From: an uncultured Solirubrobacteraceae bacterium
GTDB taxonomy: Bacteria > Actinomycetota > Thermoleophilia > Solirubrobacterales > Solirubrobacteraceae
Assembly (NCBI GenBank): GCA_902806205.1
Contig: CADCVR010000058.1
Coordinates: forward strand, 62,001-126,000
Length of the DNA: 64,000 bases
Direction: 5' to 3'
Part shown: one piece after another, positions 52,888 through 61,986 of the stretch
Layout of the letters: each line of letters opens with the position of its first letter
Position numbering within the stretch: position 1 is the first letter of the stretch
Position numbers and translations under genes: made by a program
The notes under the pieces: generated by a model
What the model saw: the letters and a program-made list of their open reading frames with translations, nothing else
Database searches by the model: none
What the model was told of the DNA's origin: nothing

Positions 52888-53160
52888 TCAGCGCCCGGCG
52901 CGCAGCCGGGCGATGACCCCGTCAGCGACGTCCGAGTCGCCCGGCTCGCCAGGACCGGTGCCGAGCTCGCGCAGTGCGCTGATGGTGCGGTGCAGGGCGG
53001 CGAGCAGCTCATGGCACTTGGGGCACAAGCGGGCGTGGTGCTCGACGCGTTCGCGTCCGGCCTCGTCGAGATCGTCGTCGAGGTACTGCGAGGCGTGCTC
53101 GAACGTGAAGCGGTGCTCGCGCCCGAAGCGCAGGGGATGTCGCAGCATGGGGTGCATCAC
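52888..53160 (-). CDS. Anti-sigma factor (zf-HC2 type)
   Basis: A 90-residue protein with a zinc-binding anti-sigma motif H-x3-C-x2-C (HARLCPKC) in the expected context (YLDDDLDEAGRERVEHHARLCPKCHELLAAL). No TM helix, so a soluble, redox-type (RsrA-like) anti-sigma is likely. The GTG at 53160 overlaps the sigma gene stop (GTGA); ATG at 53157 is the next codon. Confidence 0.85.
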   Translation of the reverse strand: MMHPMLRHPLRFGREHRFTFEHASQYLDDDLDEAGRERVEHHARLCPKCHELLAALHRTISALRELGTGPGEPGDSDVADGVIARLRAGR

Positions 53161-53771
53161 ACGTCCGGGGCTTCGGGCAGGTAGCCGGCGACCGCGGCTC
53201 TGACCGTGAGGCGGGCGCGGTGCAGACGGCTCTTGAAGGCGGCTTCGCCGAGCTCCATGACGGCGGCCGCCTGCGCGGTGGTCAGCCCTTGGATGTCGCG
53301 GAGCACGAGCGGAGTGCGCAGGTCCGGACGCAGTTCGGCGATCGCGCGCTCCAACGCCGCGTGCAGGGCTCGCTGTTGGGCGACCAGCGCCGGGCCGGGG
53401 CGCGGCTCGCGAGGCTCGACGAGCTGCTCCTCCAGCGATGTCTCGCGCTGGGGTCCGGGACGGCGCTCGCGGCGGCGGTGGGCCTCGTTGACGCCGATGC
53501 GGTACAGCCACGTCGAGAAGGTGGCGTCGCCCTTGAAGCGGCCGATGGCGCGCCAGGCACGCAGGAACGCCTCTTGGGTGACGTCCTCGGCTTCGTGGCG
53601 GGTGTCGACCAGGCGGCGGACGACGGCGTGCAGCCGGTCGGCGTGTCGGCGGACGAGCTCCTCGAAGGCCGCCTCGTCACCGGCCTGCGCGCCGGCCACC
53701 AGCTCTTGGTCCTCGATCACGCCCACGTAGGCATCCTGCCGCACGCGCGGCGGCGCGAGCGTCGAGGTCAT
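53157..53771 (-). CDS. ECF RNA polymerase sigma factor
   Basis: A 204-residue ECF sigma factor: sigma-2 (residues about 40-105, FEELVRRHADRLHAVVRRLV, EDVTQEAFLRAWRAIGRF) and sigma-4 (about 145-195, LRDIQGLTTAQAAAVMELGEAAFKSRLHRARLTVR). It pairs with the zf-HC2 anti-sigma downstream. Upstream is a sequence like its own promoter (GTGAACC 53821-53827 and GTCC 53799-53802). The divergent radical SAM operon has the same kind of promoter, so it is a likely target. Confidence 0.92.
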   Translation of the reverse strand: MTSTLAPPRVRQDAYVGVIEDQELVAGAQAGDEAAFEELVRRHADRLHAVVRRLVDTRHEAEDVTQEAFLRAWRAIGRFKGDATFSTWLYRIGVNEAHRRRERRPGPQRETSLEEQLVEPREPRPGPALVAQQRALHAALERAIAELRPDLRTPLVLRDIQGLTTAQAAAVMELGEAAFKSRLHRARLTVRAAVAGYLPEAPDV

Positions 53772-53798
53772 GCAAGCGCTCGCGGGTCCACCCAGCTT

Positions 53799-53827
53799 GG
53801 ACCCCGGCTGACCGCTTGACGGTTCAC
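53799..53827 (-). promoter_or_regulatory. Possible autoregulated ECF promoter
   Basis: On the minus strand, GTGAACC (53827-53821) and GTCC (53802-53799) are separated by 18 nt, close to the ECF form GGAACC-N17-GTCT seen upstream of the divergent operon. The first eight bases of both (GAACCGTC) are the same. Confidence 0.35.
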
Positions 53828-53893
53828 CTGAAACCGCGAAGAGCGCGCTCGGGTAGCCCTGGTCAGTGGCTGCGCGCCACACCGCCGCGGACG

Positions 53894-53920
53894 GGAACCG
53901 TCGGCCGGTGCAGAAGGTCT
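53894..53920 (+). promoter_or_regulatory. ECF-type promoter of the radical SAM operon
   Basis: GGAACC (53894-53899) and GTCT (53917-53920) with 17 nt between them match the GGAAC / GTC-type promoters used by ECF sigma factors. The GTG start of the radical SAM gene is 9 nt after the -10, so the message is leaderless or nearly so. Confidence 0.6.
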
Positions 53921-53929
53921 GATCCTCTC

Positions 53930-54766
53930 GTGAGCGCCGCCGCCGACGCCATCGCCTCCGGGGCCTTGAACGGCCGGGTGTGGTTCTACAGCAACTACCA
54001 CTGCAACCTGCAGTGCTCCTACTGCTTGACGGAGTCGGGCCCGCGCGTGCTGCGGCGTGAGCTGCCGGGCGAGGTGATCCTCGATCGCGCCGCCGAGGCG
54101 GAGGCGCTCGGCTTCACGGCCTTCGGCGTGACGGGCGGCGAGCCGTTCATCCGTGACGACATGCCGGCGCTGGTCGCCGAGCTGGGGCGTCGCCGGCCGA
54201 CCGTCGTCCTGTCCAACGCGACGCTGTTGAACGAGCGGCGCCTGCGTGAGCTCGAGCCGGTCGCCGACCTGCCGGTGCACGTGCAGATCTCGCTCGACCA
54301 CCCCGATCCGGTCGCCAACGACGAGATGCGCGGGCCGGAGAACTTCCGCAAGGTCATGGAGGCGATCCCCAAGCTCGTCGAGCGCGGGATCGGCGTGCGG
54401 ATCGCGACCACCCTCGAGGACCCTGACGCGGTCGACCCCGAGCAGCGCGAGCGACTCTGCGAGCTGCACCGCTCGATGGGCATCCCCGACGAGGACCACG
54501 TCGTGCGGCCGATCGTCAACCGCGGCCGCGCCGCGACGAACGACCTCGGGCTCCTGGCCGGCTTCGAGCAGCTCGAGCCCGAGCTGACCGTGACCGTCGA
54601 CGGCGCCTTCTACAGCCCCTTCGGCCCGACGGTGCGCGGTGGGCGCCTGGACAGCGACCTGCTGGTCTCACGGGCCACCGCCCCGCTGCAGCGCCCCGTC
54701 GACGCGCTGCTGCGCATCGCCGACCAGCTTCCCGACGGCCACGACGCCAGCATCGGCATCAGGTGA
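53930..54766 (+). CDS. Radical SAM protein
   Basis: A 278-residue radical SAM enzyme. The 4Fe-4S motif is CNLQCSYC (C-x3-C-x2-C), followed by GVTGGEPFIRDD, the SAM-binding GGE motif, and VQISLDHPD. The short C-terminal part has no SPASM-type Cys cluster. Radical SAM enzymes start radical chemistry on peptides, cofactors or small molecules; the substrate is unknown. It is the first gene of an operon with AhpD-like, DoxX-like and DUF3179 proteins, behind an ECF-type promoter. Confidence 0.88.
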   Translation: MSAAADAIASGALNGRVWFYSNYHCNLQCSYCLTESGPRVLRRELPGEVILDRAAEAEALGFTAFGVTGGEPFIRDDMPALVAELGRRRPTVVLSNATLLNERRLRELEPVADLPVHVQISLDHPDPVANDEMRGPENFRKVMEAIPKLVERGIGVRIATTLEDPDAVDPEQRERLCELHRSMGIPDEDHVVRPIVNRGRAATNDLGLLAGFEQLEPELTVTVDGAFYSPFGPTVRGGRLDSDLLVSRATAPLQRPVDALLRIADQLPDGHDASIGIR

Positions 54767-55377
54767 ACGTGAAGCATCGCCGCTCGGTCGAGCAGCACGC
54801 GAACGAAGACGCCGTGAGCACCGCCGCTCCGCTGGTCGAGCTTGTCATGCGCGACCAGGCGCCGCTGCTGGCCCGGCGCTTCTTCGGCGACGGCCCGCCG
54901 AGCCCGATCACCGCTTCGCTGGCCCAGGTACCGGAGCTGCTGGAGGTCGCCCTGCCGTTCATCGGCGCGGCGCTGGGCCCCGGCGCGCTCGACGCGCGCG
55001 CAAAGGAGCTGGCGATCCTGCGGACCTCCGCGCTGCTGGAGTGCCGCTACTGCGTGCAGACCCACACCGCCGTCGCGCTCGACTGCGGCTTGAGCGCCGA
55101 GGAGGTCCGGGTGCTGCGCGGCGAGCTGGAGCTCGACGCGGCGTTCACCGCTGAGCGCGAGCGCACGATGCTCGCCTGGATCGACGCGGTCGCCGCAGGA
55201 CGCGGTACGGTCGACCCCGGTCTGCAATCCCGTGCCGCCGAGGCGCTGGCCGACCACGAGCTCGTCGAGCTGACGCTGACCGTCACCGCGACGCTCATGC
55301 TCAACCGCTACTGCACCGCACTGGACCTGCCGGTCTCCGCGGCCACCCTCGCGCGGCTGACCGAGGAGGGCTTCTGA
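54763..55377 (+). CDS. Carboxymuconolactone decarboxylase / AhpD-like protein
   Basis: A 204-residue helical protein with the AhpD-type redox motif ECRYCVQTHT (C-x2-C followed by His), in the CMD fold. AhpD-like proteins act as alkylhydroperoxidase partners or peroxidatic enzymes. GTG start overlapping the radical SAM gene (GTGA). Followed directly by the DoxX-like gene. Confidence 0.87.
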   Translation: MNVKHRRSVEQHANEDAVSTAAPLVELVMRDQAPLLARRFFGDGPPSPITASLAQVPELLEVALPFIGAALGPGALDARAKELAILRTSALLECRYCVQTHTAVALDCGLSAEEVRVLRGELELDAAFTAERERTMLAWIDAVAAGRGTVDPGLQSRAAEALADHELVELTLTVTATLMLNRYCTALDLPVSAATLARLTEEGF

Positions 55378-55944
55378 GTGAACCGCTCGGCCGCGGAGTC
55401 CGTTCAAGCCGACATGCCCGACGCCCTCGACGCCCGATCGCTCGGTCGCGGGCTCGCCGCCCTGCGGATCTTCTTCGGGCTCATCCTCTTCTCCAACGGG
55501 CTGGCCAAGCTCCTGAGCTTCCGCGAGATCTCCGCCGGCCCGTACAAGAGCTTTCTCATCACCCGCGACGAGGCACGCTCGATCCTCGAGTTCGAGGTCA
55601 ACCAGCGCAACGGCGGCACCGACGTCCCCCTCCTGAGGACCCTGGTCAACGACGTCGTCCTCGCCAACTGGGGCGTCTTCGAGTGGATCGTCACGTTCGT
55701 CGAACTCGGCGTCGGCGCCCTGCTCATCCTCGGCCTCGCCAGCCGCGGCGCCGCGCTCGTCGGCTTGGGCCAGCAGCTCTTCCTGCAGCTCGTCTACCTC
55801 TCCAGCAACCGGTGGGCCTTCGAGCAGCCCCACGAGTGGGTCCCGCTGCTGATCCTCGCGCTGGTCCCCGCCGGCCGCGTCTGGGGCCTCGACCGCCGCT
55901 TCGCCGGCCGCGGGCTGCGGCGCCCGCGGGGCTGGCCGTTCTGA
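55378..55944 (+). CDS. DoxX-like membrane protein
   Basis: A 188-residue protein with four TM helices (ALRIFFGLILFSNGLAKLL, FEWIVTFVELGVGALLILGLA, GAALVGLGQQLFLQLVYL, VPLLILALVPAGRVWGL), the DoxX/TQO small-subunit layout. These proteins take part in membrane redox or thiosulfate/quinone reactions. GTG starts right after the previous stop. Confidence 0.85.
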   Translation: MNRSAAESVQADMPDALDARSLGRGLAALRIFFGLILFSNGLAKLLSFREISAGPYKSFLITRDEARSILEFEVNQRNGGTDVPLLRTLVNDVVLANWGVFEWIVTFVELGVGALLILGLASRGAALVGLGQQLFLQLVYLSSNRWAFEQPHEWVPLLILALVPAGRVWGLDRRFAGRGLRRPRGWPF

Positions 55945-55950
55945 GCGACG

Positions 55951-57183
55951 ATGGCGCGCCGGCTTCGAGCTCAAGTGCCGGACCTGGACTGTGCCCCGCG
56001 CCGCGCCAAAGCCGCCCGCGTCTCCTGGCCGCTGCTCGGGCTGCTGGTCGTGATCTGGGTCCTCGCGGGCTGTGGCACGGGGCCGGCCGGCGAGGAGAGG
56101 CCGGGAGGCGACGAGGCATCGGCCGGCGACGATCTCCGCGTCTCCACCGCCGGGTGGAAGACGGACTTCGAGAAGCATTCCGTGCCGCTGTCGGAGTTCG
56201 CGTCCGGCGGACCCCCGCGGGACGGCATCCCGCCGCTCGACGACCCGAAGACCGTGACGATCGCCGCCGCCGACCGATGGCTCGACGACCGCGAACCGGT
56301 GCTCGTGACCGAGGTCGGTGGTCGAGTGCGCGCCTACCCGCACCAGATCCTCATCTGGCACGAGATCGTCAACGACGTCCTCGGCAGCCGCCCGATCGCG
56401 GTCACGTACTGCCCGTTGTGCAACTCGTCGCTGGTCTTCCACCGGCGCGTCAAGGGCGAGACGCTGCGCTTCGGGACGACCGGCAACCTGCGCAACAGCG
56501 ACCTCGTGATGTGGGACCGCCGCACGGAGTCGTGGTGGCAGCAGCTCACCGGTGAGGCGGTCGTCGGAGAGCTCACCGGCACGCGGCTGGAGGCGGTACC
56601 GTCGCAGACGCTGAGCTGGGCGGACTTCAAGGCCGCACATCCGCGAAGCGACGTTCTCTCGCGCCAGACCGGCTACGACCGCGACTACGGCGCAAATCCC
56701 TACGAGGGCTACGACGCCCGCGACGCCGAGCCGTTCCTCTTCGACGGCAAGGCCGACGCTCGCCTTCCCCCCATGGAGCGGGTCGTCGCCTTCAAGCAGG
56801 ACGGCGGAGTCGTCGTGCCGTTCTCGCGCCTGGACCGCAACCCCGTCGCCCACGTCCGAGTGAGCGGCCGTCCGGTCGTCGTGCTGTTCAAGGAGGGAGT
56901 CGTGTCCGCCCTCGACGCCGCGGCCATCCAGCGCTCCCGTGACGTCGGCACCGCGGGCGCCTTCGATCGCCGCGTGGACGGCAGGACGCTCGCCTTCGAG
57001 GCGCTCGGCGGCGGGCGCTTCCGCGATCGCCAGACCGGCTCGACGTGGGACATCACCGGCCGCTCCCTTACCGGCGAACTGGCCGGCGCAACGCTGCGCC
57101 CGATCGTGCACGACCAGCAGTTCTGGTTCGCGCTGGCCGCGTTTCTCCCCAAGGCGCGCATCGCCGGCCGGCGCGGGGGGTGA
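55951..57183 (+). CDS. DUF3179 lipoprotein
   Basis: A 410-residue lipoprotein (lipobox LAGC, Cys41) with a DUF3179 domain: RAYPHQILIWHEIVNDVLGSRPIAVTYCPLCNSSLVF carries the conserved YCPLC and His residues, with GNLRNSDLVMWDRRTESWWQQ following. DUF3179 proteins are secreted, of unknown activity, thought to bind a metal or cofactor. It ends the radical SAM operon. Confidence 0.85.
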   Translation: MARRLRAQVPDLDCAPRRAKAARVSWPLLGLLVVIWVLAGCGTGPAGEERPGGDEASAGDDLRVSTAGWKTDFEKHSVPLSEFASGGPPRDGIPPLDDPKTVTIAAADRWLDDREPVLVTEVGGRVRAYPHQILIWHEIVNDVLGSRPIAVTYCPLCNSSLVFHRRVKGETLRFGTTGNLRNSDLVMWDRRTESWWQQLTGEAVVGELTGTRLEAVPSQTLSWADFKAAHPRSDVLSRQTGYDRDYGANPYEGYDARDAEPFLFDGKADARLPPMERVVAFKQDGGVVVPFSRLDRNPVAHVRVSGRPVVVLFKEGVVSALDAAAIQRSRDVGTAGAFDRRVDGRTLAFEALGGGRFRDRQTGSTWDITGRSLTGELAGATLRPIVHDQQFWFALAAFLPKARIAGRRGG

Positions 57184-57397: not shown

Positions 57398-57945
57398 GTG
57401 ATCGACGCCAGGACTGATGAGCAGCTCTTGTCCGCGGTCGGCGATGAGCCGGCGGCGTTCGGGGTCTTCTATGAGCGTCACGAGGACCTCGTGCTCGTCG
57501 ATCTGCTCAAGCGCACAAGCAGCGCCGAGCTCGCGGCAGACTTGACGGCTGAGACCTTCGCGCAGGCTCTGGGCTCGGCGCACCGCTTCACGGTGGGGGC
57601 GGCGCCGGCGGCGGCGTGGCTGATCGGAATCGCACGCCACGTGTTGCTGGCCAGCTGGCGGCGGGGCCGCGTGGAGGACCGCGCGCGTCGGCAGCTGGGA
57701 TGCAGCCGGTCGTTCTCGACGATGGCGACCTCCAACGCGTCGTCGATGCGGGCTCGGAGGCCTCGCTGATGGGGTTGGTCTCCTTGTTGCCGCAGGGTCA
57801 GCGTCACGCGGTGTGGGCCCGCGTCGTCGAGGAGCGCGAGTACGTCGACATCGCGCGCGAACTGCGCTGCTCGCAGTCGGTGGTGCGCAAGCGAGTCAGC
57901 CGCGGCCTGCAGGGCCTACGAACGCAGCTTGAGGAGAGAACATGA
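57398..57945 (+). pseudogene. ECF-type sigma factor gene with a frameshift
   Basis: From GTG 57398 the frame encodes a sigma-2 domain (FYERHEDLVLVDLLKRTSSAELAADLTAETFAQAL, AWLIGIARHVLLASWRRGRVEDRARRQLG). At about 57698-57700 it leaves the family: a one-base shift restores the second half, MQPVVLDDGDLQRVVDAGSEASL, then a sigma-4 domain (VDIARELRCSQSVVRKRVSRGLQGLR) ending at 57945. The two halves together make one normal sigma factor of about 180 residues. The shift could be a sequencing error, a real mutation or, less likely, programmed. The stop overlaps the next gene (ATGA). Confidence 0.75.
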
Positions 57946-61146: not shown

Positions 61147-61170
61147 CGATAGCTGGGGGGAGACTCGAAC
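61147..61170. repeat. att-like repeat at the tRNA-Met 3' end
   Basis: The partner of the direct repeat at 60310-60333, lying within and three bases past the 3' end of the intact tRNA-Met. Confidence 0.7.
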
Positions 61171-61223
61171 TCCCGACCTCACGATTATGAGTCGTGCGCT
61201 CTGACCAGCTGAGCTACCCAGCC
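61150..61223 (-). tRNA. tRNA-Met (CAT anticodon)
   Basis: On the minus strand the acceptor arm pairs GGCTGGG (61223-61217) with CCCAGCT (61157-61151; one G-U pair). D-arm GCTCAGCTGGTCAGAGC, anticodon stem-loop CACGA-CTCATAA-TCGTG with CAT, T-loop GGTTCGAGTCTCC-type. Discriminator A; CCA not encoded. The anticodon stem fits elongator tRNA-Met of actinobacteria; a CAU-Ile2 tRNA cannot be fully excluded. Confidence 0.93.
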
Positions 61224-61338
61224 GCGGGTGATTGATTGTCGCATGTCGGCCGCAACGGACCGATTCCCGGCGGACGGCGCGCGAACGGCCGGCTCCCGCG
61301 GGCCATGAGACCCAGGCTTCGCCGCTACGGTTCGCTCC

Positions 61339-61986
61339 GTGCCCAGCGCCAAGGCCCGTCTCGGGGCGTTCGTCGCGCTGCTCAGCGTGCTGGCCGTCGC
61401 GGTGCTCCTCCTCGCACCGATCTCCGAGAACGCGCTGCGCGACACGATCCGGCCATTCGGCGTCGCCGCGCCGCTGGCCTACGTCGTGATCTCGGCCCTG
61501 CTGGGCAGCCTCTTCGTCCCCGGGCCGATCCTCGCGGGTGGCAGCGGCCTGCTGTTCGGGACCACCACCGGCTTCCTCGTGACCCTCACCGCCACGCTCG
61601 TGTCGAGCACCATCGCGGTTCTCGCCGCGCGCGTGGTCGGCCGTGAGGGCGTCGAGGACCTCGAGAGTCCGCGGGTGAAGGTCATCGAGCGGCTGCTGCA
61701 GCGCTACGGCGTCGGGGCGGTCATCGTCCAGCGACTCCTGCCCGGCGTGCCCGACGCGCCGTGCTCCTACTTGTTCGGCCTGGCCGGACTGCGGGTCTGG
61801 CAGGTCGCCCTCGGCACCTTGATCGGGGCGGCGCCACGGGCGTTCTCCTACACCGCGATCGGCGACGGCCTCGGCGCGGGCTCGCGAACGATCGCGATCA
61901 TCGGCCTGGTGACGCTGGGGATCACCAGCGTGGTCGGCCTTGCCGTCGGCGCCCTGGCCGTCCGGCGGACGCGACCCGAGCGGTGA
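61339..61986 (+). CDS. VTT-domain (DedA/TVP38-like) membrane protein
   Basis: A 215-residue membrane protein of the SNARE-associated/VTT family: about five hydrophobic helices with the conserved loop FVPGPILAGGSGLLFGTTTGFLV and the core QRLLPGVPDAPCSYLFGLAGLRVWQVALGTLIGAAPRAFSY. DedA-type proteins flip lipids across the membrane. The GTG is preceded by TACGGT (61326-61331) at 7 nt, so a leaderless transcript is likely. Confidence 0.88.
   Translation: MPSAKARLGAFVALLSVLAVAVLLLAPISENALRDTIRPFGVAAPLAYVVISALLGSLFVPGPILAGGSGLLFGTTTGFLVTLTATLVSSTIAVLAARVVGREGVEDLESPRVKVIERLLQRYGVGAVIVQRLLPGVPDAPCSYLFGLAGLRVWQVALGTLIGAAPRAFSYTAIGDGLGAGSRTIAIIGLVTLGITSVVGLAVGALAVRRTRPER

What the first reader, a model, noticed from the sequence alone, without database searches (positions are those of the whole stretch)
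52888..57183. ECF sigma regulon: divergent radical SAM / AhpD / DoxX / DUF3179 operon
A sigma/anti-sigma pair with a zinc-type redox motif (H-x3-C-x2-C) is divergent from a four-gene operon starting with GGAACC-N17-GTCT, and the sigma gene has a similar site. The operon combines radical SAM chemistry, an AhpD-type CxxC protein, a DoxX membrane redox protein and a DUF3179 lipoprotein. This looks like a thiol- or oxidant-triggered system making or repairing something at the membrane, and I do not know a described pathway with this set.
Basis: partly seen in the sequence, partly recalled or inferred. Interest (0 to 1): 0.6.

Follow-up and report, generated by a model that had tools for sequence, protein, structure and literature searches.

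The report
Sigma-factor redox regulon with radical-SAM operon
A soil-type actinobacterium carries a stress-sensing gene switch (a sigma factor and its zinc-binding inhibitor) next to a four-gene operon of uncharacterised redox enzymes, and comparison with related genomes strongly suggests the switch governs a family of cell-surface thiol-redox genes that includes these, though what the enzymes make is still unknown.

Summary
At 52888-57183 an ECF sigma and a zinc-binding anti-sigma gene diverge from a tightly packed operon: radical SAM, AhpD/CMD, DoxX, DUF3179 lipoprotein. Both promoters share GAACC-N16/17-GGTCnnA. This pattern occurs only five times in the 3.38-Mb genome, and two of those are here. 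In eight genomes with orthologous sigmas, the stricter TGAACC form occurs 27 times, against 1 for the reversed control and 3 in ten genomes listed without the sigma (one of which proved to carry it). It sits before the sigma itself, unlinked DUF3179 genes, periplasmic thioredoxin/CcdA, FAD-disulfide-reductase/TVP38/DUF427 genes and, in two genomes, DoxX-AhpD-radical SAM. DUF3179 and sigma co-occur (11 of 15; p about 1e-8). The sigma-to-operon link is therefore strongly supported by comparative evidence, and the regulon is an extracytoplasmic thiol-redox set. The four-gene operon as such is unique to the window; radical SAM-AhpD is the old conserved pair, DoxX commonly joins it, and DUF3179 belongs to the sigma. 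The anti-sigma has an HHCC zinc site (RslA/ChrR type), not the RsrA type, so oxidant sensing is plausible but unproven. Selenium and arsenosugar readings were tested and failed. The radical SAM product is unknown. New variant of a known kind.

The parts
52888..53160 (-). Anti-sigma factor, 90 aa, soluble, zinc-binding (ZAS); zinc site H16-X25-H42-X3-C46-X2-C49; its only two Cys are in the CPKC motif
   Evidence: zf-HC2 27.8 bits over cut-off 22.2; Cys count and conserved N-terminal His in orthologues; overlaps sigma gene by 4 nt
53157..53771 (-). ECF sigma factor, 204 aa
   Evidence: Sigma70_r2 and r4_2; TIGR02937 87.7 bits over cut-off 42.9; orthologues in 13 other genomes, plus one frame-interrupted copy in G121
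53797..53825 (-). Predicted sigma-dependent promoter of the sigma/anti-sigma operon (TGAACC-N17-GGTCCAA), 54 nt from the sigma start
   Evidence: same site before sigma or its operon in other genomes
53895..53922 (+). Predicted sigma-dependent promoter of the radical SAM operon (GGAACC-N16-GGTCTGA), 35 nt from the gene start
   Evidence: same site before the DoxX-AhpD-radical SAM operon in G230 and G296
53930..54766 (+). Radical SAM protein, 278 aa, one CxxxCxxC site (C25, C29, C32), no further Cys and hence no SPASM/twitch cluster; conserved C-terminal ...IR
   Evidence: PF04055 77 bits; nearest NCBIfam NF049973 (Rv1681 family) 181.5 bits, below cut-off 380; alignment A1; model pLDDT 90, fold matches SkfB/SuiB/viperin/MoaA
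54763..55377 (+). AhpD-like CMD protein, 204 aa, with the E-x11-C-x2-C-x3-H set (E82, C94, C97, H101)
   Evidence: PF02627 49.7 bits; TIGR00778 32.8 over cut-off 27.8; alignment A3
55378..55944 (+). DoxX-family integral membrane protein, 188 aa
   Evidence: PF07681 29.8 bits over cut-off 23.6
55951..57183 (+). DUF3179 lipoprotein (lipobox LAGC), 402-410 aa, invariant C154-P-L-C157; two homologous halves
   Evidence: PF11376 344 bits; alignment A2; halves align at 98.7% probability, E 2.7e-16

Best explanation
A sigma/anti-sigma switch of the ECF/ZAS kind holds the sigma silent while a Zn(His)2(Cys)2 site in the small soluble anti-sigma is intact. Oxidation of its CPKC thiolates (inferred) releases the sigma, which drives its own operon and a regulon of extracytoplasmic thiol-redox genes through TGAACC-N16/17-GGTCnnA promoters. 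The core targets across relatives are the DUF3179 lipoprotein, a TlpA-type thioredoxin with CcdA, and FAD disulfide reductase/TVP38/DUF427 genes. In this genome the radical SAM-AhpD-DoxX module has been placed in front of DUF3179 and under the same promoter. Shown by sequence: the genes, the two promoter sites, conservation of the site and targets in trans, sigma-DUF3179 co-occurrence. Inferred: that the sigma uses these sites; the oxidant trigger; that DUF3179 (CPLC, with Sec-containing homologues) acts as an outward-facing thiol oxidoreductase; that the radical SAM/AhpD pair makes or repairs a small redox or lipid-linked molecule used with DoxX at the membrane.
For: Promoter: 13 of 116 upstream regions at sigma loci carry it versus mean 0.19, maximum 3, for 359 permuted motifs, with spacing peaking at 17 (10) and 18 (4); 27 stringent genome hits in 8 sigma-positive genomes, control 1, versus 3 in 10 relatives not listed with the sigma, of which one (G121) turned out to have it; 5 in the own genome, two here. 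Targets: (DUF3179 in G230, G238, G242; TlpA-CcdA in G200; TlpA-DUF3179 in G244; TVP38-FAD reductase in G081; DUF427-FAD reductase in G238; DoxX-AhpD-radical SAM in G230 and G296). Co-occurrence of DUF3179 with sigma 10 of 14 against 24 of 285, p 7e-8; 11 of 15 after G121. Site before separate DUF3179 genes: 4 of 7 sigma-positive, 0 of 20 others. Adjacent gene sets: sigma-DUF3179 in G200, G244, G121, G162, with TlpA in G244 and G162. HHCC zinc site; RslA with the same site loses Zn and sigma affinity on oxidation (PMC2877774). DUF3179 homologues with Sec at UxxC/T (PMC9312934).
Against: No expression or binding data. ChrR has the same HHCC site and senses through another domain (PMC2877774), so the zinc site need not be the sensor. 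Some sigma-positive genomes lack the site before DUF3179 (G296, G162, G269), and L006 has the sigma nearby but no site before its radical SAM operon. The radical SAM-AhpD pair mostly occurs away from this sigma, so its chemistry is not specific to the stress. Genes in other genomes were called by my own codon-bias script, mostly on MAGs.
Confidence: 0.6

Rival explanations
1. The radical SAM-AhpD-DoxX module is a biosynthetic unit for a glycosylated or lipid-linked metabolite (a relative of the 'radical SAM/selenodomain-associated' or arsenosugar-type gene sets), with regulation by the sigma incidental in this lineage.
For: In other lineages the pair sits with AglJ-like glycosyltransferases, TIGR04282-like transferase/Nudix fusions, PhnD-type transporters and FadE16-like dehydrogenase; sigma-positive loci also have a second kind of radical SAM protein and CDP-alcohol transferases.
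Against: ArsS (TIGR04167) over cut-off in 0 of 28 genomes; none of the glycosyltransferase genes are in the window operon; the promoter ties the module to redox genes in three genomes (window, G230, G296).
Confidence: 0.4
2. The switch answers envelope or metal stress rather than oxidants; the redox genes serve general repair of secreted proteins.
For: Many ECF sigmas answer envelope stress (general knowledge); the regulon includes ABC binding proteins, one of metal type (G242:C57, G224), and ArsR-type regulators near the sigma; the zinc site could sense metals.
Against: The majority of targets are thiol/disulfide proteins; no metal efflux pump or protease is among the promoter-linked genes.
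Confidence: 0.25
3. A selenium system: DUF3179, AhpD and related families are known selenoprotein families.
For: DUF3179 (UxxC/T) and AhpD (CxxU) families are listed as selenoproteins (PMC9312934; PMC13188914); SelD-like genes lie near the pair in L052 and L011 (my reading of their sequences; G122:C2:605899 confirmed over cut-off).
Against: The window genome, 97% complete, has no SelD over cut-off (best 59 against 125 bits); all window proteins have Cys.
Confidence: 0.03

Closest known systems
Mycobacterium tuberculosis sigma-L / RslA regulon
   Same: ECF sigma with an HHCC zinc anti-sigma whose CXXC oxidises with Zn loss (PMC2877774); associated secreted thioredoxin-like and cytochrome-c-biogenesis genes (mpt53, Rv2877c induced together with sigL/rslA in a drug-exposed M. 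avium subsp. paratuberculosis study, PMC2806251) resemble TlpA-CcdA here
   Different: RslA is membrane-attached, here a 90-aa soluble protein; sigma-L also drives polyketide genes; no radical SAM, DUF3179 or AhpD targets known to me
Streptomyces sigma-R / RsrA
   Same: ECF sigma, ZAS anti-sigma, thiol-redox regulon
   Different: RsrA uses a C-X25-H-X3-C-X2-C site and a third Cys; here H replaces it and no third Cys exists; RsrA model 25 bits against cut-off 62.5
Rhodobacter sigma-E / ChrR (ECF11)
   Same: HHCC zinc site
   Different: no cupin sensor domain here
Rv1681-family radical SAM (NF049973) and the Rv1677-Rv1681 neighbourhood
   Same: closest named radical SAM family; FadE16 (Rv1679)-like gene near the relative in L052; rv1676-dsbF lie next to a redox regulator in M. 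tuberculosis (PMC5499769)
   Different: 181.5 bits against cut-off 380, so a sister family; the Rv1678-Rv1682 gene order is from memory
Arsenosugar biosynthesis gene sets
   Same: radical SAM, CMD peroxidase-like protein, TIGR04282/04283-like transferases in relatives
   Different: no ArsS

Membership tests
ECF sigma factors | sigma regions 2 and 4 only, about 200 aa | tested here: met
ZAS anti-sigma factors | H/C-X24/25-H-X3-C-X2-C, gene next to and co-directional with sigma | tested here: met
   H16-X25-H42-X3-C46-X2-C49, 4-nt overlap; signature from PMC6432622
RsrA-type redox anti-sigma | first zinc ligand Cys and third Cys for the disulfide | tested here: not met
   only two Cys in the protein; TIGR03988 25 bits, cut-off 62.5
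RslA-type redox anti-sigma | HHCC site with oxidisable CXXC | tested here: inconclusive
   site present; oxidation and zinc loss need biochemistry
ChrR-type anti-sigma | C-terminal cupin domain | tested here: not met
   90-aa protein, zf-HC2 only
Sigma-L regulon (as kind) | sigma drives secreted thioredoxin/CcdA genes | tested here: inconclusive
   promoter site before TlpA-CcdA in G200 and before TlpA in G244; no TlpA/CcdA target found for the window genome itself
NF049973 Rv1681 radical SAM | score over 380 bits | tested here: not met
   181.5 bits
SPASM/twitch radical SAM | extra Cys for auxiliary cluster | tested here: not met
   no Cys after C32
AhpD | E-x11-C-x2-C-x3-H | tested here: met
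   reference spacing of M. tuberculosis AhpD from memory; TIGR00778 over cut-off
DoxX | PF07681 over cut-off | tested here: met
   29.8 against 23.6
DUF3179 | PF11376 over cut-off, CPLC motif | tested here: met
   344 bits, invariant C154/C157
Arsenosugar biosynthesis | ArsS (TIGR04167) | tested here: not met
   0 of 28 genomes
Selenoprotein system | SelD in genome | tested here: not met
   best 59 bits, cut-off 125

The most novel reading that the evidence does not exclude
An undescribed oxidant-induced pathway in which a single-cluster radical SAM enzyme and an AhpD partner make a redox-active or lipid-linked molecule, delivered through DoxX to a new class of extracytoplasmic thiol oxidoreductase (DUF3179, a duplicated and possibly Rieske-like fold in which a CxxC replaces the cluster ligands).
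Probability: 0.25. Interest if true: 0.8.

Novelty: new variant of a known kind. Interest (0 to 1): 0.55.

Why it matters
It gives a promoter code and a regulon for a previously uncharacterised sigma of a poorly studied actinobacterial class. It also gives two orphan families a physiological frame: DUF3179 (which has selenoprotein members but no known function) and the radical SAM-AhpD pair (conserved across several actinobacterial classes). Each now has a candidate regulator, partner genes and testable conditions.

Tried and rejected
Selenium use: SelD absent from the window genome. Arsenosugar synthesis: ArsS absent in all 28 genomes. Membership in the Rv1681 equivalog: under cut-off. Other regulon members in the window genome: the looser motif gave 78 hits against 46 control, mostly inside genes; a good-looking site at C36:18991 had no clear gene behind it; the stringent motif leaves only two hits outside the window, neither convincing. 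The paralogous metallophosphatase-radical SAM cluster at G000:C5 has no site. A first upstream-region count had an indexing error for genes at locus edges; the corrected count is. PDB sequence search with DUF3179 found nothing; fold search gave only weak Rieske-domain matches (best E 0.019). Literature searches for DUF3179 function, Rv1681 chemistry and ECF sigmas of Thermoleophilia found no functional study. SigL-regulon source paper not held.
Full report
What is there. On the minus strand a sigma gene (53157-53771) overlaps an anti-sigma gene (52888-53160) by 4 nt. On the plus strand four genes overlap by 4 nt, abut or lie 6 nt apart: radical SAM, AhpD/CMD, DoxX and a DUF3179 lipoprotein with a LAGC lipobox. 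The genome is probably from the Solirubrobacteraceae: the contig G230:C7, labelled 'same family', has the length of JAJCYD010000007, a Solirubrobacteraceae MAG.

Promoters. Both units have GAACC-N16/17-GGTCnnA, on opposite strands of the 160-nt gap. In the whole 3.38-Mb genome this pattern occurs five times, three of them in the window; two in one 160-nt gap has P about 2e-8. To test whether the site belongs to the sigma I collected sigma orthologues (44-63% identity) from 13 other genomes among 299 of the class and read their surroundings. In 116 upstream regions at these loci the site occurs in 13, against a mean of 0.19 and a maximum of 3 for 359 permuted motifs, and the spacing peaks sharply at 17-18. 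The stringent form TGAACC-N16/17-GGTCnnA has 27 hits in eight sigma-positive genomes with one for the reversed control. It has three hits in ten genomes not listed with the sigma; one of these, G121, on inspection carries the sigma in a copy whose reading frame is interrupted in the assembly, next to DUF3179.

Regulon. Twenty of the 27 sites lie between genes. Downstream genes are: DUF3179 (G230, G238, G242; relaxed site in G081); TlpA-CcdA (G200); TlpA followed by an LGT/DUF3179 fusion (G244; domains); TVP38 followed by an FAD disulfide reductase (G081); DUF427 followed by the same reductase (G238) or by TVP38 (G242); DoxX-AhpD-radical SAM (G230 and G296); a PhnD-type transporter (G230); other ABC binding proteins; and the sigma operon itself (G296). 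In G230 the sigma copies lie on other contigs than these targets, so the link is in trans. DUF3179 and the sigma co-occur far above chance: 10 of 14 against 24 of 285, p 7e-8, or 11 of 15 counting G121; this count ignores shared ancestry, so the p value is optimistic. DUF3179 is next to the sigma in G200, G244, G121 and G162, with TlpA also there in G244 and G162. DUF3179 genes separate from the sigma have the site in 4 of 7 sigma-positive genomes and 0 of 20 others.

The radical SAM module. Relatives at 49-81% identity occur in about two dozen loci of several actinobacterial classes, and nearly all have the AhpD gene adjacent; DoxX homologues are frequent. A second clade at 35-41% identity, fused to a metallophosphatase in the copies read, lacks AhpD; the window genome has one such copy at C5. 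The protein has only the three cluster Cys, a confident fold (pLDDT 90) and matches SkfB, SuiB, viperin and MoaA, so it is probably a single-cluster radical SAM enzyme. AhpD keeps the full E/C/C/H set. In other lineages the pair keeps company with glycosyltransferases, TIGR04282-like/Nudix proteins and FadE16-like dehydrogenases, so its product may be lipid- or sugar-linked. This is inference. Among the loci read, DUF3179 joins the radical SAM genes only in this window, so the four-gene operon is a local combination of an old pair and a core target of the sigma.

Sensor. The anti-sigma's only Cys are the two of CPKC. With H16 and H42 they form H-X25-H-X3-C-X2-C, and the N-terminal His is conserved in orthologues. 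This is the RslA/ChrR ligand set. RslA loses zinc on oxidation by a CXXC disulfide (PMC2877774), a ChrR model site is rapidly attacked by singlet oxygen (PMC6432622), but ChrR itself senses through a cupin. Oxidant sensing is thus plausible and untested. In several genomes the sigma gene is flanked by two different ZAS genes (L084, L089, L048, G121).

DUF3179. Its CPLC Cys are invariant here and homologues carry selenocysteine at this motif (PMC9312934), which argues for catalytic redox Cys. Its two halves are homologous (98.7%, E 2.7e-16). The predicted fold (pLDDT above 90 over most of the domain) weakly matches Rieske domains (E 0.019 and worse).

Verdict. Known kind (ECF/ZAS regulon, nearest M. 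tuberculosis sigma-L/RslA), new variant in its targets.

Noticed in passing
window 61306-61333 (-), tRNA-Met 61150-61223 (-): Third genome-wide match to the sigma promoter lies about 83 nt upstream of a tRNA-Met gene and beside a TVP38/VTT-type gene on the other strand (61339-61986); could be chance or a regulated tRNA.
   Followed up: partly
window 57398-57945: Another ECF sigma-like gene just downstream of DUF3179 appears split into two overlapping frames (region 2 at 57398-57769, region 4 in 57616-57945), so it may be broken.
   Followed up: no
L091 8074-9387 (G244): N-terminal part of prolipoprotein diacylglyceryl transferase (LGT, residues 14-160) fused to DUF3179 (164-429) behind the sigma promoter; real fusion or MAG artefact not resolved.
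   Followed up: partly
window 55951-57183: DUF3179 consists of two homologous halves with a weak Rieske-like fold match; a CxxC may stand where Rieske proteins bind their cluster.
   Followed up: partly
L065 6263-11004 (G000:C5): Paralogous cluster in the same genome: metallophosphatase-radical SAM fusion, glycosyltransferase of the TIGR04283-like cluster, a second kind of radical SAM protein (weakly TrsS/Tes-like) and a TVP38 protein.
   Followed up: partly
L084, L085, L087, L088, L093 (sigma loci): A distinct radical SAM protein of about 460-490 aa (weakly like TrsS/tetraether synthase) and a CDP-alcohol phosphatidyltransferase recur beside the sigma orthologues, hinting at a lipid branch of the regulon.
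   Followed up: no
L084, L089, L048, L187: Sigma gene flanked by two different zinc anti-sigma genes (ASF2-sigma-ASF1); the sigma copy in L187 (G121) is frame-interrupted in the assembly.
   Followed up: partly
L086 4648-7699 (G200): Operon beside the sigma with a TrsS-like radical SAM protein (363 bits, cut-off 490), ArsM-like methyltransferase, DUF547 and DUF3179.
   Followed up: no
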